This document shows, in pieces, positions 5,105 to 41,716 of a DNA stretch of 64,000 nucleotides. The notes under the pieces are model-generated. The model searched no databases. It had not been told where the DNA came from and saw only the letters and a program-made list of their open reading frames with translations. This DNA is from Streptomyces tsukubensis. GTDB lineage: Bacteria > Actinomycetota > Actinomycetes > Streptomycetales > Streptomycetaceae. The stretch spans positions 7,648,501 to 7,712,500 of the forward strand of contig NZ_CP020700.1 in NCBI RefSeq assembly GCF_003932715.1. Direction: 5' to 3'. The translations under genes and the position numbers were made by a program. Numbering within the stretch: position 1 is the stretch's first letter; every line of letters starts with the position of its first letter.

Positions 5105-5169
5105 GACAGCGACGCAAATCACCCCATACGGTGATGGAATTGTCGATCATGGTTTGTCAGGGTCGGGCC

Positions 5170-17105: not shown

Positions 17106-17690
17106 CTACGAGGCAACCGTCCTCGTCGCGACCATCAATGACCGGCTCCGACCGGCATCGTCGAGAGTGATCCAGTAGCGGCGCTTGACCCCGGCTTCGG
17201 TGCTGCGCACGTCTTCGAGGACGCCACCGTTGTTTTCGATGGTGCGCGTCGAGCCGGCGTTGCCGTCGTCACAGGTGAGGAGGACCCGGTCCAGACCGAG
17301 CGCCGGCGCCTTGAGCAGAACCGCTCCCAGCGCCCACGAGGCCAGCCCGCGTCTCCTGGCAGAAGGCCGAACGCTGTAGCCGATGTGTCCGCCGCCTTCC
17401 AGCAGAACGGCGTTCAGGTAGTGCCGAAGGTCGATGGCCCCGAGGTACATCTCACCGTCCGCGATCCACCAGTGGGTGGCGTGGACGCGCCCTTCCCCGA
17501 CAGGCAGCGACCGGTCCGATTGCTGCCGCAGTCGCTCGGTCCATGATGCGAACCCTTCCGGGTGGTCGAGGTCATCGTCACCGGCCAGACGCAGGCCGGC
17601 CCCGTCCTGATGAGCACCGGGCTGCCACTCGTCACGCGCCGTGAGCCACGAGGAATGCAACCGTCCCGTGGGAGTGATCAGTTCAGGCAT
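17106..17690 (-). CDS. GNAT family N-acetyltransferase
   Basis: 194 aa from ATG 17690 (MPELITPT); an ATG at 17723 would add 11 residues. The acetyl-CoA motif A is seen as GGHIGYSVRPSARRRGLASWALGAVLLKA, with the R-R-G-L-A pyrophosphate loop, preceded by a YLGAIDLRHYLN strand. The overall pattern is close to predicted acetyltransferases of the RimJ/RimL type that act on small molecules or peptides. The gene lies 126 bp downstream of the PKS gene on the same strand, so it could be the last gene of that transcript and acetylate the product, but the gap leaves room for its own promoter. Confidence 0.75.
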   Translation of the reverse strand: MPELITPTGRLHSSWLTARDEWQPGAHQDGAGLRLAGDDDLDHPEGFASWTERLRQQSDRSLPVGEGRVHATHWWIADGEMYLGAIDLRHYLNAVLLEGGGHIGYSVRPSARRRGLASWALGAVLLKAPALGLDRVLLTCDDGNAGSTRTIENNGGVLEDVRSTEAGVKRRYWITLDDAGRSRSLMVATRTVAS

Positions 17691-17816
17691 GCGAGGGACG
17701 ATAACAGCCGCATCCCAGCGCATGCCCTGCCGAGCACGGCCTGACGCCGGGGAGCGCTCGGACTGGCGCCGGAGTCGGTGCTGTTGTCCTGCAAGGGGGT
17801 GGTGGCGGCCGGGGCT

Positions 17817-20800
17817 TCAGGCGGTGTTCGGGTCGCTCAGGCGGTTGATCCAGTCCTCGACGGCGTGGGCGGTCGTCTCGGCGTGCTCCCGCATCATGGT
17901 CAGATGGTCGCCGGGTGTGATGGTGCTCGGGACGAGAGGGAATTCGGCCCTCAGACCGAGAATCGGTGCCTCCGCCGCCACGAGGAGAGCGGGTAGCCGC
18001 GGGTGGTCCGGGCTCCATGCGGTGAACAGGTCGAAGTAGTGGCTCATCGCGGTGAGGCCGGCGGTGTCGAGGAGGTCCGCCTCACCGGTGTGCTCCCAGG
18101 AGCGCCAGGTCACTTCGGCCGCGAGGCCGGGCGTGATCTTACGGCCGACGCCGGTGTCCAGGAGGACGACTCCGAGGGGTGGGTTCGGGTGGCCGGAGAG
18201 CTGCTGCGCTGTGGCGTAGGCGACCCAGCCGCCGCTGGAGTGTCCCAGGAGGACGTACGGTTCGCCCTGCGACGCCTCCCGTACGGCTTCTGCCATGGTG
18301 CCGACGAGCGCTTCCCGTGTCGGCGGCAGGGGTTCGCCATCGGTGTAGCCCGGGAGCGGGAGTACGGTCACGCCCCGGTGCGGGGGCAGGTGCCGGGCCA
18401 GTGTCCGGTACTGGAGCGGGTCGGCCGGGGCGGGCAGCGCGGGGACGCAGATGATGCGGGGCGCCCACCCTCCCGGGGCCAGGACTGTGGGCCGGGCCGC
18501 TGCCACCCGGGTCTTCCCATGGCACTCCGCGGCCAGACGCGCCCTGGTGGCGGCGCGTGCCGTCGTCGTGGCCTCGGCCGGGTCGCCCGCCCGTCGCGCG
18601 GCGTGGTACCGGGCGACGGAGTTGTCCGACTCCTCGGCATCGGTGTCGGCTGGGGCGCTCGTGGGGGACAGCAGCGTGGTGAGGTGCTCGGCCAGCTTCC
18701 GGGGGGTGGGGTGGTCGAAGACCGCGGTCGTGGCCAGGCTGATGCCTGTCGCGATGTTGAGGCTGTTGCGGAGCTGGACGGACGCGAGGGAGTCGAATCC
18801 GGCGGCGCGGAAGCCGCCGTCCGGGTCGACGGCGTCCCTGTCGGTGTGTCCGAGCGCCGTGGCGGCGCGGTCCAGCACCAGGTCGAGCAGTGCGATTCGC
18901 TGCTTCTCGGCGCTGAGGCCGGCCAGTTGAACGGCGGTGGAGGGTTCGGTGTCCGGTGTGGGGCGGATGGGCCGGTTTCGCGGCCGGACGAGGTCGCGCA
19001 GCAGTGGTGATGTGCTGTCCCCGACGGCGTGCGCGATACCGAGGGCGGCGACGGCGAGGAGGGGCTCCTCGGACCCGGCCGCCGCGTCGTAGAGGGCCAG
19101 ACCGTCCTGGTCGGTGAGGGACCGCAGGCCCTGACTCCGGATCCGGGCCCGGTCGGTGTGGCCCAGATGGCCGGTCATGCCGCTGTCCTGTTCCCAGTGG
19201 CCCCAGGCGAGGGAGATGCCCGGCAGGCCCTGGGCGCGGCGGTGGTACGCGAGGGCGTCCAGGAAGGTGTTGGCCGCGGCGTAGTTGGCCTGCCCGCCGG
19301 TGCCGAGCTGCCCGGCCATGGAGGAGTAGAGCACAAAGGCCGAGAGGTCCATGCCACGGGTGAGTTCGTGGAGGTTGAGGGCGGAGTCGGCCTTCGCGCG
19401 CAGGACGCGGTCCACCTGTCCGGGGGTCAGGGACGCGAGGGTGGCGTCGTCGAGGACACCTGCGGTGTGGACGACGGAGGTCAGCGGGTGCGCGGAGGGC
19501 ACGGTATCGAGGAGACGGCCCAGCGCGTCGCGGTCCGCGGTGTCGCAGGCAGCGATGGAGACCCGGGCGCCGAGTGCGGTCAGGTCGTCGCGCAGAGCGG
19601 CGGCTCCCGGTGTGTCGGGCCCTCGTCGGCTGGTGAGCAGGAGATGGCGGGTGCCGTGTTCGGTGACCAGATGGCGGGCGAGGAGGCTGCCCAGGGTTCC
19701 GGTGCCGCCGGTGATGAGGACGGTGCCGTCGGGGTCCGGAGTGCGGGGTGCGATCAGGACGTTCTTGCCGGTATGCCTGGCCTGGCTCATATGGCGGAAC
19801 GCCTCGGGAGCGCGACGGGCGTCCCACGCGACCACGGGGAGGGGGGTGACGACCCCCTGCCGGATCAGGTCGGGGAGCTCGGTGACCAGGGCGTGCCAGC
19901 GGCCGGTGTCCGCCGACGACAGGTCGATGACCCGGTAGTCCACACCGGGGTGATCGTTTGCGACGGTCGCGGGGTCGCGGGGGTCGGTCTTCCCCAGCTC
20001 GACGAAGTGTCCGCCGCGGGGCATCAGGCGCAGTGAGGCGTCGATGAACTCCTGGGCCAGGCAGTTCAGTACGACATCCACCCCTGCCCCATCGGTCCGC
20101 TGGAGGAAGGCACGCTCGAAGTCGAGGGTGCGGGAGGACGCGAGGTGGGTGTCGGGGATCCCCATGGCCCGGAGGGTGTCCCATTTGGCGGGGCTCGCGG
20201 TGGCGTACACCTCGGCGCCCAGATGTTGGGCGAGCCGGACGGCTGCCATGCCGACCCCGCCGGCCGCGGCGTGGATCAGGACCTTGGCGTCCTTCTTGAG
20301 GCCGACAAGGCGTACCAGGGCGTCATAGGCGGTGAGGTACGCCACCGGAACGGTGGCCGCCTGGGGGAAGGACCAGCCTTCCGGGACGGGCAGCAGGCGC
20401 CGCTGGTCGGTGATCGGATCGGTGGCGAACACGGTGTAGCCGGGCAGCAGCCCCATGACCCGGTCGCCGGGGGCGAGGCCGGTGACACCCGGCCCGGTCC
20501 CGGTCACCACACCGGCCGCCTCGGCGAAATGGGCATTGCGGTCCAGGACGATCCCGAGAGCCATCAGGACAAAGCGGAAGTTGATGCCGGTCGCGCGTAC
20601 GGAGACCCGGACCTCCCCGTCGCCGAGCGGACGGTCCGACTCGGGTGCGGGAATCAGCCGGATGCCGTCGAAGGTGTTCGTGGTGCCGAGGTCCAGTTTC
20701 CACGGGGCCCGGAGGTCCAGTGGTGCCGGCGCGGCGGCCGGGGCGAGCCGGGGCGCGCGCAGGGTGCCGTCGCGCAGGGCGAATTGGGGTTCGCCGGTGG

Positions 20801-23800
20801 CCAGTGCGGCGGGCAGGGCCCGGAACGAGGTTTCCAGGCCGTCGAGGTCGGCGAGGGTGAACTGTCCGGGGTGCTCGTTCTGGGCGGAACGCAGCAGTCC
20901 CCAGAGTGCGGCCTGCCCGGGGGAGCGAAGCTCCTCGCCTGCCTCGGTGGTCACCGCGCGGTGGGTGACCACCAGCAGACGGGTGTCGGTGGTCCGGTCG
21001 TCGGCCAGCCACGCCTGGAGTCGTCCGACGGTCTCCCGGACGAGGGCGCGCACTCCGGACGCGGTGAGGTTCTCGCCGTGCTGGAGCGGAGGGACCAGGA
21101 CGGCGGTCTCCGGGATCGGCGCCCCGGCGGCGAGAGCCTGCCGGAGGGCCGCGAGATCCGGATGGCAGAGGCCGGGCGGTACGAGACCGGCCGTCACCGC
21201 GCGCAGCGCCGTAACGGAGCCCGCCCAGACCCAGCCGGTGCCGCCCGCGTCGTCGGCCGGGACGAGCGGCTTCGGGGGCCAGGCGATACGGTGCAGAGCC
21301 GTCTCGGCGACGGCCGACGACCGCAGGGCGTTCCCGCTGACGGGCCGCAGTACCAAGGACCGGGCCTCGGCCACCGGGGCACCGGAGGCATCGCTCACCG
21401 TGACGGCGACCGTGCCGTCCGGTGCGCGGACGAGACGGGCCCGCAGGCGGGTGGCCCCCGCGGTGTGGAGCCGGACGTCGTGCCAGGAGAAGGGCAGCAT
21501 CAGCCCGTCCGTACCGCTGCCGGACTCCGCGAGCAGCGCGTGCAGTACGGCGTCCAGCAGAGCGGGATGCAGGGCGAAACGGGCGGCGTCGGCGTGGTGT
21601 TCACGGCCGAGTCCCGCCTCGGCCAGGATCGTGTCGCCGTCGCGCCGTACGGCTGTCAGATTGCGGAAGGCGGGACCGTACTCGTAGCCGGTGTCCGCCA
21701 GCCGCGGATACAGGCCGTCGATGTCGACGGGGAGCGCCCCGGACGACGGCCAGGGCCGGCCGGTGGGCGCGGCAGGAGCCGCGGGGGACCCGGCGGACAG
21801 CACCCCGGAGGCATGACGGGTCCACGGAGTGCCGTCGGCGGTGTTCTCGGCGCGCGAGTGGATGCGCAGGGTGTACGTACCGTCGGAAGAGGGTGCGGCG
21901 GCGATCTGGATGCGGACGGCGTCGTACCCGGGCAGGACGAGCGGCTGTTCCAGGACGAGTTCGCCGACGCGGTCGCAGCCCAGCAGGGCAGCGGTGTGCA
22001 GGGCCAGATCCAGGAAGGCGGTACCGGGCAGCAGTACCGTCCCGCGTACGGCGTGGTCGGCCAGCCAGGGGTGGGTGGGCCGGGACAGCCGCCCGGTCAG
22101 CAGCAGTTGCCCCGAATCGGCGAGGAAGGTCTGCGCGCCGAGCAGCGGATGGCCGGAGGCGTCCTGGCCGCTGATGGCCGCGCCGGAGCGCCTGCCCGAG
22201 GTTTCGTCCAGCCAGAACCGCTCGTGCTGGAAGGCGTACGTCGGCAGATCCACCGGCCGCGCGCCGGTTCCGGTGAACACCATCGCCCAGTCGGTCGGGA
22301 CCCCGTGGACATGGGCCTCGGCGAGCGCCCGATGGAAGCGGTCCATGCCGCCGTCGTCGCGTCGCAGCGTCGACAGCACGGTGGCCGGGGAGCCCGCGGT
22401 CTCGGTGATCTCCAGCATGCCCATGGCGAGTACCGGATGCGGACTGATCTCGACGAGGGCGGTGTGCTCGTCGCGCAGGAGGGAGGCCAGGGCGGGCGCG
22501 AACCGGACCGGCCGGCGCAGATTGCGGAACCAGTAGGAGGCGTCGAGCCCGCCGGTTTCGATGATGCCCCCGGTGACGGTGGAGCAGAACGGGAGCGTGC
22601 CCTGCCGGGGCCGGATATCGGAGAGTTCGGCCGAGAGCCGTTCCCGGAGGCGGTCGACGTGCGGGGAGTGCGAGGCGTAGTCGACGGCGATCCGCCGGGC
22701 CCACACCCCGCGCTCATCGCACAGGGACAGCAGCTCCGCGAGCGCCTGCGCGTCGCCGGACACGACCGTACTGCCGGGACTGTTGTGAGCCGCGACGGAC
22801 AGCCGTCCCTCCCAGCGCTCGGCCAGTTCCCCGGCCTCCTCGGCGCACAGCGCCAGGGTCGCCATACCGCCGGTGCCGGAGAGTTCGAGGAGTGCCCTGC
22901 TGCGGAGCGCGACCACCTTCGCCGCGTCCTCCAGGCTCAGGGCACCGGCGACACAGGCAGCGGCGATCTCGCCCTGACTGTGGCCGATGACGGCGTCGGG
23001 CTCGACTCCGTGGGCCCGCCACAGCGCGGCGAGCGACACCATGACGGCGAACAGCACCGGCTGCACCACATCCACCCGGTCGAGACCGGGGGAGTCCGGC
23101 GCACCGCGCAGGACGTCCGTCAGCGACCACTCCACATGCGGGGACAGGGCCCGCTCACATGCCTCCATCCGCCGGGCGAAGACCGGCGACGACGCCAGCA
23201 GGTCGACGGCCATACCCGGCCACTGGGAGCCCTGGCCGGGAAAGACGAAGACCGTGCGCGCCGGGGCGTGCGCCGTGCCCCGTACGACATCCGGTGCTTC
23301 GACGCCGTCCGCCAGTCGTCGCAGCGCTGCGGTCAGCTGCTCGTGGTCGGTGCCCAACACCGCCGCGCGGTGCTCGAACCGTGCCCGGGTGGCGGCCAGC
23401 GACCAGCCCACGTCGACGGGGACGAGGGTCTTCTGCTCCCGCAGGTGTGTCAGCAGTCGCCGGGCCTGGGCCCGCAACGCCTCGGCAGTCCTGGCCGACA
23501 GGATCCAGGGCCTCATGGACTCGGGTGCGACCGGTTCACCGGCGGGTGGCACCGGTTGCCGGGGCACGGCCGGCGGCGGAGGAGCCTCCTCCACGATCAC
23601 ATGGACGTTGGTGCCGCTCACTCCGTAGGACAGGACCCCGGCCCGGCGCGGCCGCCCGAACCCGGGCCAGGGGATCGACTCGGTGAGCAGCCGCAAATGT
23701 CCGCTGTCCCAGTCGATTTCGGGGTTCGGTGTCCCGGCGTGCAGGGTCTTGGGCAGGGTGCGGTGCCGGATGGCCTGGATCACCTTGATCAGACCGGCCG

Positions 23801-24950
23801 GACCCGCCGCGGCCAGGGTGTGCCCGATATTGGACTTCACCGAACCCACATGGACCGGCCGCTCCGCCGGCCGGTCCTGCCCGTAGGTGGCGAGCAGAGC
23901 ACCTGCCTCGACCGGATCGCCCAGCCGGGTCCCCGTGCCGTGGGCCTCCACCAGATCCACGTCCCCGGGCGTGAGCCGGCCGTCGGCCAGGGCCTCCCGG
24001 ACGACACGCTGCTGTGCGGCTCCGCTCGGGGCGGACAGACCCTGGCTCGCGCCGTCCTGGTTCCAGGCCGTACCCCGGATCACCGCCAGGACCGGGTGCC
24101 CGTGGCGCCGCGCGTCCGAGAGCCGCTCCAGCATCACCATCGCGGCGCCCTCGGCCACGCCGAACCCCCGGGCCCCGCTGCCGAACGCGCGGCTGCGGCC
24201 GTCGTCGGCGAGTACCCCCTGCCGGCTGAAGTCCACCAGCAGACCGGGTGTCCCGTGGACCGATGCCCCGCCGGCCAGGGCCAGCGGGCACTCGCCCGAC
24301 CGGAGCGACCGGACGGCCAGATGCACCGCCGCGAGGCCGGACGAACAGGACGTGTCGACGACGGTCGCCGGGCCTTCGAGCCCGAGAAAGTAGGAGAGGC
24401 GCCCGGCGGCGACACCGGTCGACCCGATCAGCAGATGCCCCTCCGACTCGCATCCCTCGTCCATCCGCGGGCCGTAGTCGGTGTGGAACGCGCCCACGAA
24501 CGATCCCGCGCCGGTGCCCCGGAGCGATCCCGGGACGATACCGGCGCGTTCGCACGCCTCCCAGGCGGTCTCCAGCAGCAGCCGCTGATGCGGGTGCATG
24601 GCCGCGGCCTCGCGCGGCCCGATGCCGAAGAACCGGGCGTCGAAGCCGGCCGGATCGTCGAGGAAGCCGCCCTGCCGGATATAGAAGGTGCCCCGGCTCT
24701 GCCGGTCCGTGTCGTACAGCGCATCAAGGTCCCAGCCGCGGGAGGTGGGCAGTTCCCCGATCACCTCCCCGCCGGAGGCCACCAGTTGCCAGAGCTCCTC
24801 CGGAGTGGAGATTCCCCCGGCAAAGCGGCATGCCGTCCCGATCACGGCGACCGGCTCGTCCTGATACTGCGGCCGGGCCGACGCCTCCCGGGGACCGTTC
24901 ACGGGGGAAGTTCCGTCGTCGGACGGGGCGGCTGTGGTGAAGGTGCTCAT
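17817..24950 (-). CDS. one-module reducing type I polyketide synthase, KS-AT-DH-ER-KR-ACP-TE
   Basis: 2377 aa; ATG 24950 follows AAGGAACATC. Domains: KS about 35-455 with Cys202 (DTSCSS), EAHGTGT and KSNIGH; AT about 560-870 with Ser658 (GHSQGE); DH about 930-1200 with His966 ([10 protein letters not shown]); ER about 1430-1740 with the nucleotide loop [11 protein letters not shown] about 1745-1925 with GGTGTLG and Tyr1890; ACP with Ser2054 (GFDSLAS); TE with Ser2238 (GHSSGG) and a late GDH. AT motifs RVDVVQ and YASH (from 758) predict methylmalonyl-CoA. The KR has the LDD motif of B-type reductases. ER has Val where Tyr would predict a 2S methyl. All domains look active, so each round should give a fully reduced alpha-methyl unit, followed by release. 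No loading domain is present; the facing operon may supply the starter. Confidence 0.95.
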
Positions 24951-25629
24951 CACGATGTTCCTTCAGGCCACGCCGCCCGGGGCGCGCTTGGCCGTGGTTC
25001 GGTAAGGGAATGGAGGAGCGGGAGTGGCTTCGCCCTGTGCACCGGCGGCGGCAAGCGTCTTCCTCGTGGCGCTGCGGGCATCGACGACCGCCATACCCGT
25101 GGCACAGCGCTCGCAGGGGGATCCACCCCGCCGTCTGCGGGGCTGATGCGAAAATATGGCGAAGAAGCCCTGTCGAAGAAGGGCGTTGGGCGATCCCGTT
25201 CGAGTGGATCCGGAGACAGGTGTACGGCCCCGCGGCCTCCCTGGGAGGGCGGGACACCGGGCCGTCGGCGCCGATGACGGGACCGGCTCCGCTACCGACC
25301 CTGGTCACCATGGCCGACAGCGGCCCCGGACCGCCGCCGGGCCGTTCCATGACGCCCCGCAGCCGCGAGGTTCCCCGAAATGGGTCCTGGTGCATCAAGT
25401 CGACGTGCCTCGCCATCCCGTTCAACCTGCCACTCGGACGGCTCCCCGGTACCATCAACCAAGGCGACAAAAAAGGGCATAAGGGGCATTTCTCAACCGG
25501 GCCTTGCCGTCCAGCACGTCGGCCCCTGGGGCCTCACCGCAGGACAGCGCGCAGCGGCTTGCAACGCCTTCGGCAGCGCCGACGACGACCTGGCCCGCGC
25601 CTTCCGCGACCAAGGGAGCAGCCAATGCT
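24951..25629. promoter_or_regulatory. divergent control region between the PKS and the KAS III/mutase operon
   Basis: About 680 bp with no supported gene. It contains rare AT-rich spots: AAAATAT near 25150, whose minus-strand reading TATTTT could be a -10 box for the PKS, and CAAAAAAGG near 25467 on the plus side. No pathway regulator gene is present, so the bidirectional promoter here is the likely control point. I found no strong operator palindrome. Confidence 0.4.
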
Positions 25630-25821
25630 GTGAATCCGCAGAGACGTGCCGATCGACAAGGTGAGAACGAAGGAGCCGGCCCCCTCGCTCCCGAGGCCGT
25701 ACAAGCCCGGGCAGCCTTCGACTCCCTCGCCGATACCGCCGCTCCGGCGGCGGCGGCAATCCAGCGGGGCAGCCGGAATGCGGCAGCCGACGGGAACGGC
25801 CGACAAGCGGAGGAGCTATGA
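25630..25821 (+). CDS. possible leader/small protein, 63 aa, coupled to KAS III
   Basis: GTG 25630 follows GGGAGCAGCC, and the stop overlaps the KAS III start (ATGA), the same coupling used by most of the other junctions in this operon. The product is hydrophilic and Ala/Gln-rich with one likely amphipathic helix (PEAVQARAAFDSLADTAAPA). Third-position GC is about 70 percent, lower than neighbours, so coding status is moderate. No domain recognised. It might be a real small component, or just an upstream frame that helps load ribosomes. Confidence 0.4.
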   Translation: MNPQRRADRQGENEGAGPLAPEAVQARAAFDSLADTAAPAAAAIQRGSRNAAADGNGRQAEEL

Positions 25822-26825
25822 AGCACGCAGCGAAACCCTTGAACCGCGGTTCACACATCCTGTCCGTGGGGGCGTATCAGCCGGCTCGCGAGGTGAGCAA
25901 CGCCGAGATCTGCGAGCGTATCGACTCCAGTGACGAGTGGATCCGCCGCCGCTCCGGCATCAGCACACGCCGCTGGGCGGGCGCGGACGAGACCGTCGCA
26001 GACATGGGCGTACAGGCCGGGTCCCGGGCTCTGACCACCGCCGGTCTTGAAGGGGGCTCCGTCGACACGCTTCTCGTGTCGACCGTGACTCATCCGTACC
26101 AGACCCCGGCGGCAGCGCCGGAGATCGCCGAACGCCTGGGCATGCGATCGGTTCCGGCGTTCGACGTGTCCGCCGCCTGCGCCGGATTCGGCTACTGCGT
26201 CGCCCTGGCCGACTGCGCGATCCGTGCGGGGGACGCACAGTGTGTGATGGTGGTGGCAGCCGAGAAGCTCACCGACATCACGGACCCGGACGACCGGACC
26301 TCGGCCTTCCTGTTCGCCGACGGCGCGGGAGCGGTCGTCGTCTCGGCCACCTCGGCGCCCGGCCACTACGGCATCGGACCCGTGGCGTGGGGCAGCGACG
26401 GATCACGGCTCTCGGTCGTCGGCCAGCAACCGTCCTGGGCCGCCTTCCACCCTGACAACCCCGGGCCGCGGCCCGCGCTCCGCATGCGCGGGCAGGAACT
26501 GTACCGGTGGGCCGTGAGCGAGCTGACGAAGGTCTGCACCCGTGCCGTCACGGCAGCCGGAGTGGATCTCTCCGAGCTGAGTGCGTTCATCCCCCACCAG
26601 GCCAACGCCCGCATCACCGACGCGCTCGCCAAGGCCCTCGGAATACCCGGCCACGTCGTGTGCGCACACGACATCGAACACTCCGGCAACACGTCGTCCG
26701 CGTCGATCCCGCTCGCCATGGAGCACCTGCTCTCCACCGGGGCGGTACGCAGCGGCGACCTCGCCCTGCTGCTGGGCTTCGGCGCCGGACTCACCTACGC
26801 CGCCCTGGTGGTGGAACTGCCATGA
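25818..26825 (+). CDS. beta-ketoacyl-ACP synthase III-like enzyme (KAS III / FabH family)
   Basis: 335 aa. KAS III enzymes condense an acyl-CoA with malonyl-ACP or transfer acyl groups to prime synthesis. The triad is complete: Cys121 (SAACAGF), His260 (IPHQAN), Asn291 (HSGNTSS). The N-terminus SVGAYQPAREVSN and SDEWIRRRSGI is typical. ATG 25818 has GGAGGAGCT upstream. Its location at the head of an operon with an acyl-CoA mutase and an ACP-bearing protein suggests a dedicated role in starter-unit loading rather than housekeeping fatty-acid synthesis. It overlaps the mutase by 4 nt. Confidence 0.9.
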   Translation: MKHAAKPLNRGSHILSVGAYQPAREVSNAEICERIDSSDEWIRRRSGISTRRWAGADETVADMGVQAGSRALTTAGLEGGSVDTLLVSTVTHPYQTPAAAPEIAERLGMRSVPAFDVSAACAGFGYCVALADCAIRAGDAQCVMVVAAEKLTDITDPDDRTSAFLFADGAGAVVVSATSAPGHYGIGPVAWGSDGSRLSVVGQQPSWAAFHPDNPGPRPALRMRGQELYRWAVSELTKVCTRAVTAAGVDLSELSAFIPHQANARITDALAKALGIPGHVVCAHDIEHSGNTSSASIPLAMEHLLSTGAVRSGDLALLLGFGAGLTYAALVVELP

Positions 26826-28408
26826 CCGACGAACTCCGCTACACCGCCGCCCGGATCCCGCTGGCGTCGTACTACACCGCTCTGCCGCCCGGTACCGATG
26901 CCGAGACCCTGGGCAAGCCCGGCGAGCCGCCGTACACCCGCGGCCCCTACGGCTCCATGTACCGCGACGTCCCCTGGACTGTGCGCCCTCTCGCCGGATT
27001 CGGCACCGCCTCCGACACCAACGCGCGGCTGCGGATGCTGCTGGAAGAAGGAGCCACCGCGGTCAACACGGTCTTCGACTATCCGACGAACCGCGGCTAC
27101 GACAGCGACGATCCGGTCGCGAGTGCCGACGCCGGGCTGGGGGGAGTGGCCGTCGACAGCGTCGACGACGTCCTCGAACTCTACGAAGGCATCGACCTGG
27201 AGTCGGTGAGCGTCTCCCTCGTGCTCTCCCACCCCGTCGCCGCCGGGGTGATCCTCGCCATGTACTTCGCCGCGGCGCAGGAGCGGGGCATCCCGCTCGA
27301 AGCACTGCGCGGCACGCTCCAGAACGACTTCATGATGGAAACCGTCGTACTGACGGCTCCCCAGGTACTCGACCCCGGATTCGCCCTGCGGCTCGCCGTG
27401 GACGTCGTCGAATACTGCACCGCGGCAGCGCCGCGCTGGCATCCGGTCAGCTTCGCCGGATACAACTACCGCGAAGCCGGAGCCGACGCAGTACTCGAAA
27501 TCGCGTTGGTCGTGGCCAACGCCATCGCCACAGCCCAGTGCATGGAAGCCCGCGGCCACCCCTTCGACTCGTACGCCCGCAGGCTGTCCGGCTTCCTGGC
27601 GGCGGGCAACGACCTCATCGAGGAGACGGCGAAGTTCCGCGCCGCGCGCCGCGTCTACCACAGGGAACTGAGCCGGCGCTTCCGGCCGCTGGACCCGGCG
27701 AGCACGCGTCTGCGGTTCCATGTGCAGACGAGCGGCTCCACCCTCACCTCCCGCCAACCGCTGAACAACATCATCCGGGCCACCGTGCAGGCACTCGCCG
27801 CCGTACTCGGCGGTGCCCAGTCCCTGCACGTCAGTGCCTACGACGAGGCCGTGGGCATCCCCACACCCGAGGCGGCGCTCACCGCCCTGCGCACCCAGCA
27901 GATCCTGCTCAAGGAGAACGGCCTGGCCCACAGCGTGGACCCGTTGGCCGGCTCGTATCTCATCGAGCACGTGACGGACGAGCTCGATGCCCGCGCCACC
28001 GCGGTGCTCGACGAGATCGAAGGGCAAGGCGGGCTCGTCGCGGCCGTCGAATCGGGGTGGGTCCACGCCCGCCTCCTCGACCAGGCCTACAACACCACCT
28101 GCATGACCGACAGCGGCGAACTCCCGGTAGTCGGCGTCAACTGCTGCGTTACGTCCGGTGAGCCGCCCCTTGAAGTCTTCACGCCTCCGCACGCGGCGGA
28201 ACGACAGGCACACAAACTGGCCCGGCTGCGGGCCCGACGTGACCACCGTGCGGTCGCCGCGGCACTCGACGACCTGACGGCATGCGTGAAGCGGGGAGAC
28301 AGCACCATGCCCGCACTGCTCGCGGCAGCCGCCGCGCGGGCGACCGTCGGCGAATGCGCCCAGGTCTTCCGGACCGCCCACGGCCACTGGCACCAGCCGC
28401 TGAGTTGA
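26822..28408 (+). CDS. B12-dependent acyl-CoA mutase large subunit, divergent active site
   Basis: 528 aa, methylmalonyl-CoA-mutase family, which performs 1,2-rearrangements through the 5'-deoxyadenosyl radical. Family landmarks: GPYGSMYRDVPWTVRPLAGFG, TLQND, EYC.., AGYNYREAG, AKFRAARR, NIIRATVQALAAVLGGAQSLH. Aligned by eye to the P. shermanii enzyme, three active-site residues differ. Tyr89 is Leu57, Arg207 (which binds the methylmalonyl carboxylate) is Leu177, and the conserved His244 is Asn215. Isobutyryl-CoA mutase has Phe and Gln at the first two sites, so this protein matches neither. The substrate is presumably a nonpolar acyl-CoA. It lacks the B12 domain, which the next gene supplies. 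ATG 26822 overlaps the KAS III stop. Confidence 0.9.
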   Translation: MTDELRYTAARIPLASYYTALPPGTDAETLGKPGEPPYTRGPYGSMYRDVPWTVRPLAGFGTASDTNARLRMLLEEGATAVNTVFDYPTNRGYDSDDPVASADAGLGGVAVDSVDDVLELYEGIDLESVSVSLVLSHPVAAGVILAMYFAAAQERGIPLEALRGTLQNDFMMETVVLTAPQVLDPGFALRLAVDVVEYCTAAAPRWHPVSFAGYNYREAGADAVLEIALVVANAIATAQCMEARGHPFDSYARRLSGFLAAGNDLIEETAKFRAARRVYHRELSRRFRPLDPASTRLRFHVQTSGSTLTSRQPLNNIIRATVQALAAVLGGAQSLHVSAYDEAVGIPTPEAALTALRTQQILLKENGLAHSVDPLAGSYLIEHVTDELDARATAVLDEIEGQGGLVAAVESGWVHARLLDQAYNTTCMTDSGELPVVGVNCCVTSGEPPLEVFTPPHAAERQAHKLARLRARRDHRAVAAALDDLTACVKRGDSTMPALLAAAAARATVGECAQVFRTAHGHWHQPLS

Positions 28409-28425
28409 GGCAGAGGTGAGCCGAT

Positions 28426-28845
28426 ATGCCTATCCGGGTCGTCATGATCAAGCCGGGACTCGACAGCCACTACCGCGGAGCCCTCGCCGTCTCACGGTAT
28501 CTCTCCGCACACGGCATGGAGGTCGTCTACGCGGGCCACCAGAGCGCCGACGGTGCCGCAGCCGTCGTCGAGCAGGAGGACGCCCATGTTCTCGGCATCT
28601 CCAGCCTGTCAGGAAACCACCTGCGCACCGTCCCCCGGATCCTCCGGGCACTGCGCGAGCACTCACTCGGCCATGTCCTGGTGCTCGTCGGCGGCGTGAT
28701 TCCGGAGCCGGACCGCGCCCTTCTGCACGACGCCGGAGTCGCCGAGATCTTCAGCCCCGGCACCCCCCTGCACCGCATCTCCGAATTCATCGAACATGCC
28801 CTGCCTCCAGACGACACCGACGACGTTCCCAGGCGGATGCCATGA
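28426..28845 (+). CDS. B12-binding small subunit of the acyl-CoA mutase
   Basis: 139 aa; ATG 28426 follows GAGGTGA. The cobalamin signature is intact: DSHYRG (D-x-H-x-x-G, where His binds cobalt), SSLSGNH and GGVIPE, then AEIFSPGTPLH. Usual form is DGHDRG, so the two variable positions differ. Size matches IcmB-type small subunits (about 136 aa). It is separated from the large subunit by only 17 nt and overlaps the next gene by 4 nt, so the three are made together. Confidence 0.92.
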   Translation: MPIRVVMIKPGLDSHYRGALAVSRYLSAHGMEVVYAGHQSADGAAAVVEQEDAHVLGISSLSGNHLRTVPRILRALREHSLGHVLVLVGGVIPEPDRALLHDAGVAEIFSPGTPLHRISEFIEHALPPDDTDDVPRRMP

Positions 28846-30944
28846 CCTACGGACCCGACATCACCGAATCCCTCGCTCTCCAGCCCGCGGCCGAACCGGT
28901 GCTGAGGCCCCGCCGTGACGCGCCGGTCGCGGTTGTGGGCGCCGCCTGCCGGGTCCCCGGCGCGAACGATCCCTCCGAGCTCTGGAAACTCGTATGCAGG
29001 GGGGAAACCATGATCAGCCGCGTCCCGGCGGAAAGGATTCCCGGCTACGACGCGGACACCGCTCGCACGGCCGAGGTCCACGCGGGACTGCTGGAGCGCA
29101 TCGACACCTTCGACGCGGAATTCTTCGGCATCCGGCCCCGCGAGGCCGCTGCTATGGACCCGCAGCACCGCCTTCTGCTCGAAGAGGCGTGGCACGCCTG
29201 CGAGGCCGCGGGCATCGCGCCCGGTGACCTCGCCGGAAGCCGGACGGGAGTGTTCATGGGAGTCAACGCCTCCGAGTACCGCGAACGCCTGGCGGCCTCG
29301 ACGATCGACGCCTTCTCCGCCACGACCGTACCGGGTGCGTTCGCGGCCAACCGGATCTCCCGGCAGTTCGACCTGCGCGGACCGAGCATCACCGTCGACA
29401 CCGCCTCCGCCAGCGGCATGACCGCCCTCGCCCTGGCCGTGGCCGCACTGCGCGCCGGCGAGTGCGCAGCCGCGTTCGTCGGCGGCGTGTTCGTCCTGTG
29501 CAACGGGGTCGGTGAAACGGTCTACCGGAGGGCACGCATGCTCTCCCCGGGAAACCGGGCCAGGCCACTGGATGCCGCTGCCGACGGATACCTGCGCGGC
29601 GAGGGCGTCGTCTGCCTCCTGCTCAAACCGCTGGAGACAGCCCTGGCCGACGGCGATCCCGTCTTCACCGTCATCCGCGATGCCGGCACCGGCCACGACG
29701 GCCGCCGAGGCGGTCTGACGTCCGCCGATGCCTCCGCGCTCGCCGAGCTCGTCATACGCACCGTCAGAGGCGCGGGCCTGGAGATGACGGACCTCGGCTA
29801 TGCCGAGTGCCACTCCGGCGGAAATCCGGTGACCGACCTCGCCGAAGCCGCCGCCCTGGCCCTCGCAGTGCGGCAGGACGGTGCCGGAGCCCGGGGCGCG
29901 GGCCCCGACGGTGCGCTGTGGCTGGGGTCCCTGAAAGGCACCATCGGCCACCTCGAAGCCGCCGCCGGTCTCGTCAGCCTGACGAAAGCGGCCCTGGTGT
30001 TGCAGCACGGCCTCCTGCCACCGGTCACCGGACTGGACACCGTCGCCCCCGGGCTCAAGGAGCTCGCACCGGCCGTCCGACCGGTCGAACACGCAACACC
30101 CTGGCCCGCCGCGCCGACGCCGCATCGCGCCTGCGTGACCACCTTCGGTGTCGGCGGGTCCACCGTCTGCGCCGTCCTCGAACAACCCCCTCGGTCCGCG
30201 TCAGCACCGTCGGCCGTGCACCACGGCCGGTTCCTCGTCCCGCTGTCGGCGGCCACCCCCGCCGCCCTCGACCGGCTTCGCCGCCGGCTCCGCGACCATC
30301 TCGTCGGCCGTACACCGGCCCCCGGTATCGCGGCCGTGGCCTGGACACTGCAGGCCGGCCGCGCACCGCTCCCCGCCCGCCTGCTGCTCGCCGCCACCGG
30401 CATCGACGAGCTCATCGACGGACTGACCCGACCGGCCGGTGAACAGGAGCACGACGGTCCCCCGGCCGGACTGACCGGCCATCAGCAGGCGCTGGCGGTC
30501 TCATGGACGGCCGGACAGGACGTCGACTGGTCGACGCTGTGGCCGCACGGCACGCCCCGCAGGATCCCGCTGGCCCCGTATCCGTTCGAGCCCGCCGGCC
30601 ACTGGCTGCCCGGCTGCGACGCACCGACCGGACCGGCCGCCCGTCCCGTACGGTCACAGCAGACGGCGACACCCGCCCTGCTCCCGGAACCGGGACCGTA
30701 CGACGAGGGCGCGCTGCGGGACACCGTCCTGCGCATCCTCGCGACAGCCCTGCGCTGCGAGCCGGAAGCCCTCGACCCGCACGCGCAACTGCGGGACCTC
30801 GGCCTCAATTCCCTGCTCGTCGCCGAACTGTCGATCGCACTCGCAGACCGGCTCGGCCGCGACGTCCAACCGGAGCTGATCTACCGTCATGCGACGGCCC
30901 AGAACCTCATCACCGCCCTCGAAGCCGACAGGAACCCGGCATGA
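28842..30944 (+). CDS. ketosynthase-like protein with Ser for Cys, fused to a C-terminal ACP
   Basis: 700 aa. Residues about 28-450 are a type I PKS ketosynthase (VAVVGAACRVPGA, FDAEFFGIRPREAAAMDPQHR). The nucleophile position, normally DTACSSS, reads DTASASG, with Ser189 replacing Cys. The two histidine motifs persist in altered form (AECHSGG for EAHGTGT; KGTIGH for KSNIGH). The usual post-KS linker follows, with no AT, KR or TE. Residues about 615-695 are an ACP (DLGLNSLLVAEL, phosphopantetheine Ser in LNSL). A Cys-less KS cannot form the normal acyl thioester; it could decarboxylate an extender, transfer acyl groups, or act as a chain-length factor-like partner. The ACP could carry the substrate for the P450. 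ATG 28842 overlaps the mutase small subunit. Confidence 0.9.
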   Translation: MTYGPDITESLALQPAAEPVLRPRRDAPVAVVGAACRVPGANDPSELWKLVCRGETMISRVPAERIPGYDADTARTAEVHAGLLERIDTFDAEFFGIRPREAAAMDPQHRLLLEEAWHACEAAGIAPGDLAGSRTGVFMGVNASEYRERLAASTIDAFSATTVPGAFAANRISRQFDLRGPSITVDTASASGMTALALAVAALRAGECAAAFVGGVFVLCNGVGETVYRRARMLSPGNRARPLDAAADGYLRGEGVVCLLLKPLETALADGDPVFTVIRDAGTGHDGRRGGLTSADASALAELVIRTVRGAGLEMTDLGYAECHSGGNPVTDLAEAAALALAVRQDGAGARGAGPDGALWLGSLKGTIGHLEAAAGLVSLTKAALVLQHGLLPPVTGLDTVAPGLKELAPAVRPVEHATPWPAAPTPHRACVTTFGVGGSTVCAVLEQPPRSASAPSAVHHGRFLVPLSAATPAALDRLRRRLRDHLVGRTPAPGIAAVAWTLQAGRAPLPARLLLAATGIDELIDGLTRPAGEQEHDGPPAGLTGHQQALAVSWTAGQDVDWSTLWPHGTPRRIPLAPYPFEPAGHWLPGCDAPTGPAARPVRSQQTATPALLPEPGPYDEGALRDTVLRILATALRCEPEALDPHAQLRDLGLNSLLVAELSIALADRLGRDVQPELIYRHATAQNLITALEADRNPA

Positions 30945-32212
30945 ACCCGATCCTCTCCTTCGACGACACCGATCTCGGCGCCCCGGACACCTACGCGACC
31001 GGCCCGCCCCACACCGCCTGGGCCCGACGGCGCACGGCCGGTCCGGTGGTACGGGACGGCTCCCCGGCCCTCGGCCGGCGCTTCTGGTCGGTCACCGGCT
31101 GGTCAGCGGCGCGCGAACTGCTCGGCCGGCCCGAGGACTTCTCCAGCAGGTACGGCATGGTCCTCGGCTACGGCCCCGACTGCCCCGACCCCGCCGGGCA
31201 GCAGATGATCTCCGCCTGCGACGCACCGCAGCACACGCACCTGCGCGCCCTCATGCACGGGTACTTCACCCCCCGCTGGGCCCGCACCACGGCCCAGGCC
31301 CTGGAGGACGCGCTGCGCACCCGGCTGGCACCCCTTCTCCGCACCGGGGAACCGTTCGACTTCGCCCGCGATATCGCCGGCCATCTGCCGATGGAAGCCG
31401 CTTGCCTGATACTCGGCCTGCCACCACACGACCGGGACGAACTCTATGCCCTGGCAACCTCGACTCTCAGCGGCACGGACCCCGACTCCGCCCGCGACCA
31501 CGGAGTGCTCACCACCGCGACCGCCCACGCCGAACTCTTCACCTACTTCCTGCGCCTGACCCGCGTACGCCGCGGAGCGGGGGACGACGACATGATCCGG
31601 GCCCTGGCCACGGCCAGGGCGCCCGAGCCGCTCACGGACCAGGAGGTCGCCGCGAACTGCGTCGGTGTACTGATCGCGGCCACCGAGACGACACGGCTCG
31701 CTCTGGCCGGGGCGGGCACGATCCTGGCGGCCCACCCCGACATCCGGGCGCTTCTCAGCGGCAGCGCCGAGCAGCTGCGAACCACGGGGGAGGAGATCCT
31801 GCGATGGACCTCTCCGGCCACCCATGTACTGCGTACCGCGACACACGACACCACACTGGCCGGCTACCCGATCGCCGCCGGTGACCTGGCCGTCGCATGG
31901 CTGGGGGCAGCGAACCGGGACGCGCACGCGTTCGACCGGCCCGGCGTCTTCGACCCGGCCCGCACACCGAACCGGCACATGGCCTTCGGCCACGGTCCCC
32001 ATCACTGCATCGGCGCCACCGTCGCCCGGATCGAACTGGCCACCACCCTGCGCATCCTGCACACCGAGACCACGGGCGTCGAACTCCTCGGCCCGCCCAC
32101 CCATCTGCGGTCGATCCACACCTCCGGATACAAGAGCCTCCCCCTCAGACTCCTCGCCCGCCGACCGGACCGGGCGCGCCTGCGCCCGCCGTCCACGACA
32201 GGACTGCCATGA
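30941..32212 (+). CDS. cytochrome P450
   Basis: 423 aa, soluble bacterial class. Heme ligand Cys356 in FGHGPHHCIG, EEILRW as the ExxR motif, and an I-helix IAATETT in which the usual A-G-x-E-T has Ala for Gly. RHMAFGHGPHH is close to P450s that act on carrier-bound chains, in line with the ACP encoded immediately upstream; this is inference. No ferredoxin gene is nearby, so it must borrow a redox partner. ATGA overlaps at both ends couple it to the KS-ACP and the oxidase. Confidence 0.92.
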   Translation: MNPILSFDDTDLGAPDTYATGPPHTAWARRRTAGPVVRDGSPALGRRFWSVTGWSAARELLGRPEDFSSRYGMVLGYGPDCPDPAGQQMISACDAPQHTHLRALMHGYFTPRWARTTAQALEDALRTRLAPLLRTGEPFDFARDIAGHLPMEAACLILGLPPHDRDELYALATSTLSGTDPDSARDHGVLTTATAHAELFTYFLRLTRVRRGAGDDDMIRALATARAPEPLTDQEVAANCVGVLIAATETTRLALAGAGTILAAHPDIRALLSGSAEQLRTTGEEILRWTSPATHVLRTATHDTTLAGYPIAAGDLAVAWLGAANRDAHAFDRPGVFDPARTPNRHMAFGHGPHHCIGATVARIELATTLRILHTETTGVELLGPPTHLRSIHTSGYKSLPLRLLARRPDRARLRPPSTTGLP

Positions 32213-33372
32213 GCACGCTGTACGCGGGATACCAGGACCAGATCTACCGCTCCGGGACCGCCGGCCGCCGCCCGCCCTTCACCACGGACCACAGCCGCCT
32301 GGAGCGCGCGGCCCGCGACGTCATGGCGCCACAGGCGTACGGCTATATCGCCGGCGCGGCCGGTTCGGAGGCGACGATGCGCGCCAACAGGGCCGCCTTC
32401 GACCACCACGGACTCGTACCACGTGTGCTGCGGGACGTATCCGAACGGGATCTGTCCATCGAACTGTTCGGCTCACGGCTTCCCACGCCGCTGCTGCTCG
32501 CTCCCGTCGGCGCCCTCGGACTCGCCCACCCGGACGGAGAGATCGCCGCGGCCCGGGCGGCTGAGGAAACAGGAGTGCCCCTGGTGCTGAGCACGGTTTC
32601 GAGCCACAGCATCGAGGAGGTCGCCGCGGCCGCGCCCCGCGCCCGGCGCTGGTTCCAGCTGTACTGGCCGAACGACACGGAGCTCACCCTCAGCCTGCTC
32701 GAACGCGCGGTGGCCAACAGGTACGAGGTCCTGGTCGTGACCCTCGACGCGTTCGCACTGGCCTGGCGCCCCCGCGACCTGGACAGGGGATACCTGCCCT
32801 TTCATCGCCTGCACGGGCTGGCGAACTACCTGACCGACCCTGCCTTCCGGCATCTGCTGCCCAAGCCCGCCGAGACCGATCCGGCCGGAGCAGTGCAGCG
32901 GTGGTCCGAGTTGTTCAACGACGCCTCGCGCACCTGGGCGAGCATCCCGTTCCTCCGGGAGCACTGGCACGGCCCACTCGTCCTCAAAGGAATCTGCCAC
33001 CCCGGCGACGCGCGCGCCGCTGTCGACTCCGGGGCGGACGCGATCGTCGTCTCCAACCACGGCGGCAGGCAGATCGACGGCGGAGTGGCCGCGCTCGACG
33101 CGCTGGAAGCGGTGGTGGCGGCCGTGGGAGACAGGACCACGGTGCTCTTCGACAGCGGTATCCGCACCGGTGCCGACACGGTCAAGGCGTTGGCTCTCGG
33201 CGCCCGTGCCGTGCTCCTGGGCCGCCCCTACGTCTATGGTCTGGCGCTGGGCGGAACGAAGGGGGTGATCCATGTACTCCGCGGTCTGCTGGCGGAACTG
33301 GACCTGACCCTGGCGATGACCGGGCATCGCACTCCTGCGGCACTCGACCCATCGGTCCTGGTCCGCACCTGA
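32209..33372 (+). CDS. FMN-dependent 2-hydroxy-acid oxidase (lactate monooxygenase/oxidase family)
   Basis: 387 aa TIM-barrel flavoprotein. Residues near PQAYGYIAGAAGSEATMRANR and LLLAPVGALGLAHPDGE match the lactate 2-monooxygenase-like branch, as does the PFTTDHSRLE lead. Catalytic His and Arg are in SNHGGRQIDGG, and FQLYWPND supplies the active-site Tyr; the phosphate site is DSGIRTGAD / GRPYVYGLALGG. The family oxidises alpha-hydroxy acids to alpha-keto acids or, in monooxygenases, decarboxylates them. A P450 that hydroxylates and this enzyme that oxidises would together convert an alpha position to a keto acid; this is a guess from gene order. It is the last gene of the operon, before a terminator. 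Confidence 0.88.
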   Translation: MSTLYAGYQDQIYRSGTAGRRPPFTTDHSRLERAARDVMAPQAYGYIAGAAGSEATMRANRAAFDHHGLVPRVLRDVSERDLSIELFGSRLPTPLLLAPVGALGLAHPDGEIAAARAAEETGVPLVLSTVSSHSIEEVAAAAPRARRWFQLYWPNDTELTLSLLERAVANRYEVLVVTLDAFALAWRPRDLDRGYLPFHRLHGLANYLTDPAFRHLLPKPAETDPAGAVQRWSELFNDASRTWASIPFLREHWHGPLVLKGICHPGDARAAVDSGADAIVVSNHGGRQIDGGVAALDALEAVVAAVGDRTTVLFDSGIRTGADTVKALALGARAVLLGRPYVYGLALGGTKGVIHVLRGLLAELDLTLAMTGHRTPAALDPSVLVRT

Positions 33373-40522: not shown

Positions 40523-41716
40523 ATGTCCGGGGGTTGGGTGCGCATCGCAGCTCACGCCACGTGGGGCCGGGGCTTTCCGGTGAAGTACCTCCTGGTTCAG
40601 GAGGATGACGAGGGCGTGGAACAGCTCTGGGGAAGGTGCGTCGGCGTCGAAGGGCTGTTCGTCGACCCGGTTCCGCCGCCGCGGGAGGTTCTCACGCTCC
40701 GCGGATGCCGCCCCGACGGTCTTCTGAGCGAGGTCCTGGCCGAGCCCGATGTCCTGCCGCGGGGTCTGGGCGATGTGCGCGTGGAGGTCCGGGACGGGGA
40801 AGAGGCCGTGCAGTGGTGGACTCTCGTCGATGCGGTCGTGGTGGCCCATCGGCCTCACTCGGCCGATCCGGCACGGTACGACATCGTGCTCGGCGCGGGT
40901 GTCAGAAGCGAGGAGAGCCTCTCCGAGCTGCCTGCGGCGCCACGCTTCGAGCTCTTCGCGGGAACAACGACCGCTGCGGCGAGTGCGGGCCGGTGCTCCG
41001 CCGTGGACGGCTTGTTCACGGCGCGAGCGGACCCGGCTCCCGTTCCCCTGGAGCTGATCGGCTGCGAGCCCGCGGAGCCCCTGCTCGCGGTCCTGCGGCG
41101 ACCCCGCCGGTGGGAGCGGGACTGGGCCTGCCTTCTGGTTCTGGATCGCCATGGCGCTGTGACGGCCTCCCGCACTGTGGGCCTGGCCGTCACCGGAGCG
41201 CGGCCGTCCGTGCTCGGCGGGACGCTCGTCGACATCACTCTCACCGATGGCGGCGACGATCGGCCGTCGTCGGCGGTCCGTCCGGTCTGGGCCCAGTGGT
41301 ATCAGGGCCCGCCTGCAGAGCCCAACCTGTGGGCGCCGCACGACTCACCAGGCAGGGCCGCGTGGCTGGACCTCACCGCACGAGCCTGGCGGGAGCCCGT
41401 GCACCGGCCGGACCGGTTCGGCGGTGAGTACGATCTCGACGGCCGCTTCGTCACGGACGTTCCCGGGCTGCACTGCGCGATCGCCGAGGCCCTGCTCGGA
41501 CCCGGCCGCTACTTCGGCCGGGAGTGGAACGCGTTCAAGGACTGCCTGGGCGGCGGATTCGGAGTGGCGCCGCCCTTCACCTTGAACTGGCACGACTCCG
41601 AAGTCGCCCGTCGCGCCCTGGCGGCCGTTGCGGAGGATCCGGAGGACGGACTCCCCTACTTCGAGGACATCGTGCGGCTCCTCGAACGGCGCGGCGTCAC
41701 CGTCGTGCTCCGGTGA
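40523..41716 (+). CDS. barstar-domain protein with duplicated N-terminal module
   Basis: 397 aa. The C-terminal about 85 residues (from LHCAIAEALLGPGRYFG, REWNAFKDCLGGG, to RRGVTVVLR) match the barstar/ribonuclease-inhibitor fold, including the helix-plus-strand layout and a Trp/Asp at the inhibitor face. The N-terminal part has two related units (WGRCVGVEGLFVDPVPPPREVLTLRGC and RCSAVDGLFTARADPAPVPLELIGC), so an older duplication is likely. Barstar family proteins neutralise barnase-like toxins; a stand-alone immunity protein with a large N-terminal extension is unusual and no toxin gene is visible nearby. Start ATG 40523 lies in a short AT-rich stretch. Confidence 0.7.
   Translation: MSGGWVRIAAHATWGRGFPVKYLLVQEDDEGVEQLWGRCVGVEGLFVDPVPPPREVLTLRGCRPDGLLSEVLAEPDVLPRGLGDVRVEVRDGEEAVQWWTLVDAVVVAHRPHSADPARYDIVLGAGVRSEESLSELPAAPRFELFAGTTTAAASAGRCSAVDGLFTARADPAPVPLELIGCEPAEPLLAVLRRPRRWERDWACLLVLDRHGAVTASRTVGLAVTGARPSVLGGTLVDITLTDGGDDRPSSAVRPVWAQWYQGPPAEPNLWAPHDSPGRAAWLDLTARAWREPVHRPDRFGGEYDLDGRFVTDVPGLHCAIAEALLGPGRYFGREWNAFKDCLGGGFGVAPPFTLNWHDSEVARRALAAVAEDPEDGLPYFEDIVRLLERRGVTVVLR

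What the first reader, a model, noticed from the sequence alone, without database searches (positions are those of the whole stretch)
17106..33372. Unfamiliar polyketide locus: one-module reducing PKS facing a KAS III, B12 mutase, Cys-less KS-ACP, P450, hydroxy-acid oxidase operon
Seen: the seven-domain PKS (17817-24950) and, divergently, a chain of overlapping genes from 25630 to 33372. Known: KAS III primes chains; acyl-CoA mutases rearrange carbon skeletons; P450s hydroxylate; LMO-type enzymes oxidise alpha-hydroxy acids. Inferred: a branched or rearranged acyl starter is made by the mutase, loaded by KAS III onto the ACP of the KS-like protein, oxidised by the P450 and oxidase, extended with methylmalonyl units and released by the TE. 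I do not recall a characterised cluster with this set.
Basis: partly seen in the sequence, partly recalled or inferred. Interest (0 to 1): 0.9.

Follow-up and report, generated by a model that had tools for sequence, protein, structure and literature searches.

The report
B12-mutase acyl-building operon beside a PKS
Next to a one-module polyketide synthase, a Streptomyces genome carries a rare six-gene operon that appears to rearrange a small branched acid with vitamin B12, attach it to a carrier protein and oxidise it; the two neighbours are probably not one pathway, and the B12 enzyme belongs to a distinct branch for which no characterised member was found here.

Summary
The genes are real and as described, with small coordinate changes. 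Six tightly coupled + strand genes encode a FabH-type KAS III, a two-subunit B12 acyl-CoA mutase, a trans-AT-style KS-ACP whose active Cys is Ser, a P450 closest among solved structures to OxyD (carrier-bound hydroxylase), and a lactate-2-monooxygenase-type FMN enzyme. The one-pathway reading is weakened: close relatives of the PKS (81-93%) form seven other sequence clusters, only one of which shares a species label with a close relative of the operon, and the KAS III-mutase unit occurs elsewhere without this PKS. The mutase is the interesting part. Its branch has Leu and Asn where methylmalonyl-CoA mutase has Tyr and His, which argues against the known mutase types. In two type II PKS-like clusters it sits beside 2-isopropylmalate synthase, a 2-oxoacid dehydrogenase E1 pair and KAS III; in a third locus it is coupled to a 2-oxoacid:ferredoxin oxidoreductase. 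That hints at a leucine-derived (isovaleryl) substrate, hence a possible pivaloyl (tert-butyl) starter. This is inferred, not shown, and the E1 alpha gene is named pyruvate dehydrogenase. New variant of a known kind.

The parts
25818..26825 (+). KAS III (FabH type), Cys-His-Asn triad intact
   Evidence: Above the NCBIfam fabH cut-off (344.8 vs 292.1 bits); AACAGF, HQAN and GNTSS motifs
26822..28408 (+). acyl-CoA mutase large subunit (mutL), of the branch with Leu and Asn at the Tyr89 and His244 places
   Evidence: PF01642 513.9 bits; best solved relative 4r3u; residue table; tree
28426..28845 (+). B12-binding small subunit (mutS) with DxHxxG
   Evidence: PF02310 and TIGR00640 over cut-off; DSHYRG at residue 13
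28842..30944 (+). KS-linker-ACP protein without AT; active Cys replaced by Ser189, His324 and His370 kept; ACP Ser present
   Evidence: PF00109, PF02801, PF22336, PF00550; residue table; motifs
30941..32212 (+). cytochrome P450, nearest solved structure OxyD (3mgx)
   Evidence: ExxR, I-helix and heme motifs present
32209..33372 (+). FMN alpha-hydroxy-acid oxidase of lactate 2-monooxygenase type
   Evidence: PF01070 416.3 bits; aligns over residues 5-377 with lactate 2-monooxygenase including its long loop
17817..24953 (-). one-module fully reducing type I PKS (KS-AT-DH-ER-KR-ACP-TE); AT with YASH and GHSQGE, read as methylmalonyl type (recalled rule); membership in the same pathway doubtful
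   Evidence: relatives
24954..25817 (.). divergent intergenic region between PKS and operon; no gene called here by the composition-based caller

Best explanation
The six + strand genes are a self-contained cassette that makes one unusual, oxidised acyl unit on a carrier protein. Shown by sequence: gene order, coupling, families, which active sites are intact and which are changed. Inferred: (1) the two-subunit mutase rearranges an apolar branched acyl-CoA, most likely isovaleryl-CoA to pivaloyl-CoA or a close analogue; (2) KAS III uses that acyl-CoA, condensing it with malonyl held on the ACP of the KS-ACP, or simply loading it; (3) the Ser-KS does not condense, but decarboxylates malonyl-ACP or serves as docking scaffold; (4) the P450 hydroxylates the ACP-bound acyl group; (5) the lactate-2-monooxygenase-type enzyme oxidises the resulting alpha-hydroxy acid, perhaps with loss of CO2. 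The neighbouring PKS may be an unrelated resident.
For: Operon structure with 4-base overlaps at 4 of 5 junctions. KAS III-mutL-mutS in the same order at 51-60% identity in G240 and G691. In G691, 2-isopropylmalate synthase (815.8 vs cut-off 697.4), two E1 subunits of a 2-oxoacid dehydrogenase and a separate AT flank the unit; G240 has the same ten genes at 62-82% identity. In G847 mutL-mutS is followed, overlapping by 4 bases, by a fused 2-oxoacid:ferredoxin oxidoreductase. So 3 of 4 other loci examined carry part or all of an enzyme that turns a 2-oxo acid into an acyl-CoA. Of the 120 listed mutase hits, the window's own included, 119 have Leu at the Tyr89 place and Asn at the His244 place. 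The 49 rows with Leu at the Arg207 place as well form one branch at 100/100 in a 73-row tree. P450: OxyD 251.9 bits against 218.1 for the next chain; OxyD and P450sky are aminoacyl-PCP hydroxylases (PMC5238595, passages). The flavoenzyme's loop is aligned to that of lactate 2-monooxygenase; over the same stretch of 344 query residues lactate oxidase is 13 residues shorter.
Against: The window has no 2-isopropylmalate synthase, E1 or oxidoreductase gene of that kind, so the substrate is argued from other loci. The E1 alpha of G691 is over the cut-off of a model named pyruvate dehydrogenase (acetyl-transferring) E1 alpha (432.9 vs 411.35), and E1 beta matches a pyruvate dehydrogenase model below its cut-off: a branched-chain substrate is my inference. 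The other loci lack the P450 and oxidase, and only G847 has KS matches to the KS-ACP, at up to 40%. G756 has mutL-mutS with a distant thiolase-fold protein (23% to our KAS III) and no match to the 2-oxo-acid enzymes. KAS III of G240 and G691 is closer to our genome's FabH-like copy L090 (55-57%) than to our KAS III (51-52%). Pivalyl-CoA mutase as I recall it has Leu and His, here Leu and probably Leu; the alignment near Arg207 is uncertain by one residue (one search sets our Leu against a gap in 4r3u, against Arg in human mutase). The His-to-Asn change could mean different chemistry. OxyD may top the list only because few relatives have solved structures.
Confidence: 0.33

Rival explanations
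1. One reading: the operon makes a starter that the divergent PKS extends with methylmalonyl, reduces fully and releases through its TE.
For: Divergent neighbours 0.86 kb apart; AT with methylmalonyl-type motifs and a TE serine motif; relatives of both halves carry the label S. tsukubensis elsewhere.
Against: 6 of 7 PKS relative clusters at 81-93% identity carry names with no comparably close mutL or KS-ACP listed. In the shared label the two are on contigs of different length, and divergence differs: PKS 93% over 80% of its length, mutL 86%, KS-ACP 74%. The mutase unit occurs elsewhere without this PKS.
Confidence: 0.2
2. The mutase handles another apolar acyl-CoA, such as butyryl/isobutyryl, 2-methylbutyryl/valeryl or an arylacyl group, and the cassette builds a different unit from the one proposed.
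For: The nearest solved relative is 2-hydroxyisobutyryl-CoA mutase; the partner in G847 is named indolepyruvate ferredoxin oxidoreductase family, which would suit aryl groups; the E1 alpha of G691 is named pyruvate dehydrogenase; IcmF acts on both isobutyryl/butyryl and pivalyl/isovaleryl (PMC10481361, passage).
Against: 2-Isopropylmalate synthase in G691, with a 72% identical copy in G240, points to leucine-type carbon; isobutyryl-CoA is available from valine (recalled); the genome has another mutase with Phe and His at these places, as I recall for isobutyryl-CoA mutase.
Confidence: 0.32
3. The cassette is decaying or silent: the Ser-KS is a dead domain and no product is made.
For: Rare: 2 of 392 Streptomyces genomes searched have a close mutL, the window included; Cys lost in the KS; catalytic His of the mutase replaced.
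Against: All six frames are open. Motifs of KAS III, mutS, P450 and oxidase are present. The KS Ser is shared with P0010 (74%) and P0011 (41%). The mutase Asn is shared by 119 of 120 listed hits, self included. Full-length relatives exist for KS-ACP and mutL.
Confidence: 0.1

Closest known systems
2-hydroxyisobutyryl-CoA mutase (HcmA, PDB 4r3u) and members of its subclass in actinonin and matlystatin biosynthesis (ActD, MatB)
   Same: separate large and B12-binding subunits, best solved-structure match, use in natural-product clusters (PMC5719088, outline and passages)
   Different: the Ile, Asp and His of 4r3u align to Leu, Val and Asn here; no carboxylase-reductase or epimerase among the operon proteins
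Pivalyl-CoA/isovaleryl-CoA mutase activity (IcmF and the native enzyme)
   Same: proposed reaction; Leu at the first pocket position as I recall for the native enzyme
   Different: not a fused GTPase protein; second position probably Leu rather than the His I recall; Asn for the conserved His
Type II PKS starter units with KAS III and AT
   Same: KAS III-mutL-mutS order in G240 and G691
   Different: here no type II KS in the operon; the acceptor is probably the ACP of a KS-ACP
OxyD and P450sky carrier-bound hydroxylases
   Same: closest solved sequence is OxyD
   Different: carrier would be a PKS-type ACP, not a PCP; substrate unknown
Ser-type KS decarboxylases of beta-branching cassettes (CurC, PksF; recalled, one paper search found nothing)
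   Same: Cys to Ser with both His kept
   Different: fused to an ACP and without HMG synthase or enoyl-CoA hydratase genes in the operon
Lactate 2-monooxygenase
   Same: near full-length alignment including the long loop
   Different: substrate here unknown

Membership tests
methylmalonyl-CoA mutase | Tyr89, Arg207, His244 (numbering recalled) | tested here: not met
   Leu, Leu, Asn against human mutase
2-hydroxyisobutyryl-CoA mutase | Ile and Asp of 4r3u (importance recalled) | tested here: not met
   Leu and Val at the aligned positions
2-hydroxyisobutyryl-CoA mutase | two-subunit B12 mutase | tested here: met
   mutL and mutS adjacent, DxHxxG present
isobutyryl-CoA mutase | Phe and Gln in the pocket (recalled), His kept | tested here: not met
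   Leu and Asn; own paralog at 5660371 has Phe and His
pivalyl-CoA mutase | Leu and His in the pocket (recalled) | tested here: inconclusive
   first matches; second probably Leu, alignment uncertain by one residue; no reference sequence was at hand
pivalyl-CoA mutase | isovaleryl/pivaloyl interconversion | not testable with these tools
   needs enzyme assay
KAS III | Cys-His-Asn triad and fabH model over cut-off | tested here: met
KSQ loading ketosynthase | Gln for Cys | tested here: not met
   Ser189
beta-branching Ser-KS decarboxylase | Ser for Cys, both His kept | tested here: met
   S189, H324, H370
beta-branching Ser-KS decarboxylase | HMG synthase cassette beside it | tested here: not met
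   among the operon proteins only weak HMG-CoA synthase matches of the KAS III itself, far under their cut-offs, and no enoyl-CoA hydratase
carrier-protein P450 (OxyD/P450sky) | closest to these by sequence | tested here: met
   OxyD first of the solved structures; P450sky only fifth, after CYP125- and CYP126-type chains
carrier-protein P450 (OxyD/P450sky) | acts on carrier-bound substrate | not testable with these tools
   needs assay
lactate 2-monooxygenase | extended active-site loop | tested here: met
lactate 2-monooxygenase | decarboxylating oxidation | not testable with these tools
   needs assay

The most novel reading that the evidence does not exclude
The mutases with Leu/Val/Leu/Asn are a biosynthetic family of B12-dependent isovaleryl-CoA to pivaloyl-CoA mutases that supply tert-butyl starters to polyketide pathways, paired with KAS III; in the window the pivaloyl unit is placed on a Ser-KS-ACP and oxidised there by a carrier-specific P450 and a monooxygenase-type flavoenzyme.
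Probability: 0.2. Interest if true: 0.75.

Novelty: new variant of a known kind. Interest (0 to 1): 0.5.

Why it matters
Experimental evidence for how a polyketide gets a tert-butyl end is scarce: the butyrolactol A study (2017, PMC5355916, passages) called itself the first to identify the precursor by experiment, and there it is valine plus C-methylation. A B12 rearrangement of isovaleryl-CoA would be a different, methyltransferase-free route, testable in vitro with two purified proteins. It would also give a function to a mutase branch in which the conserved His is replaced by Asn and for which no characterised member was met in these searches.

Tried and rejected
Filing the mutase as 2-hydroxyisobutyryl-, isobutyryl- or methylmalonyl-CoA mutase: not done, for the residues tested. 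A KSQ loading domain: rejected (Ser). Tight co-evolution of KAS III with mutL: not supported, since the G240 and G691 copies are closer to the genome's FabH-like copy L090 than to ours. Seeing the DNA context of PKS relatives in S. qinzhouensis and others: not achieved. In one search, 71 of 120 relatives (the window among them) matched the PKS DNA at E<=1e-100, but the best listed hits other than self were partial, at 65-76% identity. In one search, 222 of 392 genomes were not scored, and the 3 hits among the 170 scored were the window and two partial matches at 68-69%. Plasmid records: no match. Papers: ten searches listed no paper that I recognised as describing this gene set; the 2012 annotation paper of this strain's PKS genes is not held, so prior mention cannot be excluded. 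An aromatic substrate by analogy to benzylmalonyl-CoA mutase (PMC8360864, passages) is kept only as part of a rival. Structure prediction was not used.
Full report
What was checked. The window lies on a contig of 7,963,742 bases, the exact corrected length of the S. tsukubaensis NRRL 18488 scaffold (CP020700) in PMC7018776 (passages). All reported genes are present. The operon is KAS III 25818-26825, mutL 26822-28408, mutS 28426-28845, KS-ACP 28842-30944, P450 30941-32212, FMN oxidase 32209-33372, with 4-base overlaps at four of five junctions. The PKS on the other strand is a reducing module with TE.

KS-ACP. It has a KS, a RhiE-like linker and an ACP but no AT, as in trans-AT enzymes. The active Cys is Ser189; His324 and His370 remain. 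Of the 120 listed homologues (of 237 found; the window's own included), 105 have Cys with both His, 3 Cys with His-Asn, 7 Gln and 5 Ser (P0009 self, P0010, P0011, P0022, P0031). From recalled biochemistry, Ser-type KSs with both His act as malonyl-ACP decarboxylases; that is an inference here.

Mutase. phmmer against solved structures puts 4r3u (2-hydroxyisobutyryl-CoA mutase) first at 407.9 bits, then methylmalonyl-CoA mutases at about 350. In the printed alignments the pocket residues differ: Leu where 4r3u has Ile and human methylmalonyl-CoA mutase Tyr; Val where they have Asp and Ala; Asn for His; and Leu where the human enzyme has Arg207. In 4r3u that last Leu faces a gap, so this column is uncertain by one residue. 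Among 120 listed protein relatives (of 3910; self included), 48 read Leu-Val-Leu-Asn, 1 Leu-Ile-Leu-Asn, 70 have Leu first and Asn last with another residue at 207, and 1 is of the Tyr/His type. In a 73-row tree the 49 rows with Leu at 207 form one branch at 100/100. Four of the window genome's five other PF01642 matches, all with His, fall outside; the fifth was not examined, and the tree program warns of long branches among those four. Names in this branch include Streptomyces, Kitasatospora, Phytohabitans and Brevibacillus.

Rarity. Close mutL: 2 of 295 Streptomyces at E<=1e-180 and 2 of 392 at 1e-140 (overlapping draw), window included both times; 1 of 396 genomes of the phylum, the window itself; 2 of 70 genomes of the genus of L036, a Kitasatospora; 1 of 300 in the family of L008, a Dactylosporangium; 0 of 8 chosen genomes. 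In some searches only 3 to 5 candidates per genome were scored.

Neighbours of the mutase elsewhere. G691: AsnB, glutamine-synthetase-like, E1 beta, E1 alpha, 2-isopropylmalate synthase (815.8 vs cut-off 697.4), then KAS III-mutL-mutS, a regulator, and AT. G240 has these ten genes at 62-82% identity. G756: mutL-mutS with a distant thiolase-fold protein, and FabF-like ketosynthases some 9 kb away. G847: mutL-mutS overlapping a fused indolepyruvate-ferredoxin-oxidoreductase-family protein (1390.3 bits vs cut-off 816), near PKS genes. That G240, G691 and G756 are type II PKS clusters is my reading of translations and families; the minimal KS genes of G240 and G691 lie outside the stretches read or were not identified. 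A dedicated 2-isopropylmalate synthase plus E1 suggests extra flux to 2-oxoisocaproate and isovaleryl-CoA. Against this, the E1 alpha scores over the cut-off of a pyruvate dehydrogenase model (432.9 vs 411.35), which allows a plain acetyl-CoA supply. An acyl-CoA mutase acting on isovaleryl-CoA would give pivaloyl-CoA, an activity reported for IcmF (PMC10481361, passage). This is the basis of the tert-butyl proposal; no product was seen.

P450 and oxidase. The best solved P450 is 3mgx, which PMC5238595 (passages) identifies as OxyD, an aminoacyl-PCP hydroxylase; P450sky (4l0e) scores 201.1 bits, after CYP125- and CYP126-type chains. The flavoenzyme aligns over residues 5-377 with lactate 2-monooxygenase, long loop included; fused L-lactate oxidases rank first in the list by whole-chain score because two copies add up (179 bits each). 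Lactate 2-monooxygenase turns lactate into acetate and CO2 (recalled). Together they suggest hydroxylation on the carrier and then alpha-hydroxy-acid oxidation, order unproven.

PKS and operon. PKS relatives besides self: P0250-P0256, 81-93% identical: S. qinzhouensis, NPDC000594, NPDC094448, CAU 1734, S. yaizuensis, NPDC058953 (partial) and S. tsukubensis (1925 aa, out of frame near its end) (alignments). Only the S. tsukubensis label recurs among close operon relatives (mutL 86%, KS-ACP 74%, both on a 16,286-base contig). The next mutL is 66%, the next KS-ACP-like protein 45% or less. The PKS is not common either: DNA searches of 120 relatives and of 170 scored Streptomyces gave no close full-length match beside the window's own.

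Verdict. The single-pathway reading is weakened. The best reading is a stand-alone acyl-unit cassette around an unusual B12 mutase branch. Confidence in the whole mechanism is 0.33 and the novel reading 0.20, both lowered slightly (from 0.35 and 0.22) on checking, because of the pyruvate dehydrogenase naming and the uncertain column at 207; the rival with another acyl substrate rose from 0.30 to 0.32. The gene anatomy is secure.

Noticed in passing
window 41790-54289: A minus-strand run of large genes: DUF5682 plus VWA_CoxE protein (1210 aa), AAA_5/MoxR-like ATPase, 620-aa and 1633-aa proteins without Pfam match, and a DUF4132 protein: looks like an uncharacterised MoxR-VWA system.
   Followed up: no
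window 40580-41716: Protein with a C-terminal barstar domain.
   Followed up: no
window 524-2353 and 4948-6396: Two subtilisin-like proteases near one another (translations, by eye).
   Followed up: no
P0256 (S. tsukubensis, contig of 211,020 bases): The PKS relative in this record stops matching near residue 1902 and ends at 1925 with an unrelated tail, so it may be broken or a sequencing error.
   Followed up: partly
G240 contig C14 (L076/L077) and G691 contig C153 (L083/L084): Two related clusters combining asparagine-synthase-like, glutamine-synthetase-like, 2-isopropylmalate synthase, E1, KAS III, mutase and AT genes; candidates for an unusual starter unit.
   Followed up: partly
P0178-P0248: Mutase relatives of about 50% identity, some labelled Syntrophales, Desulfobacteraceae or Peptococcaceae, share Leu and Asn but mostly have Thr at the 207 place; function unknown to me.
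   Followed up: no
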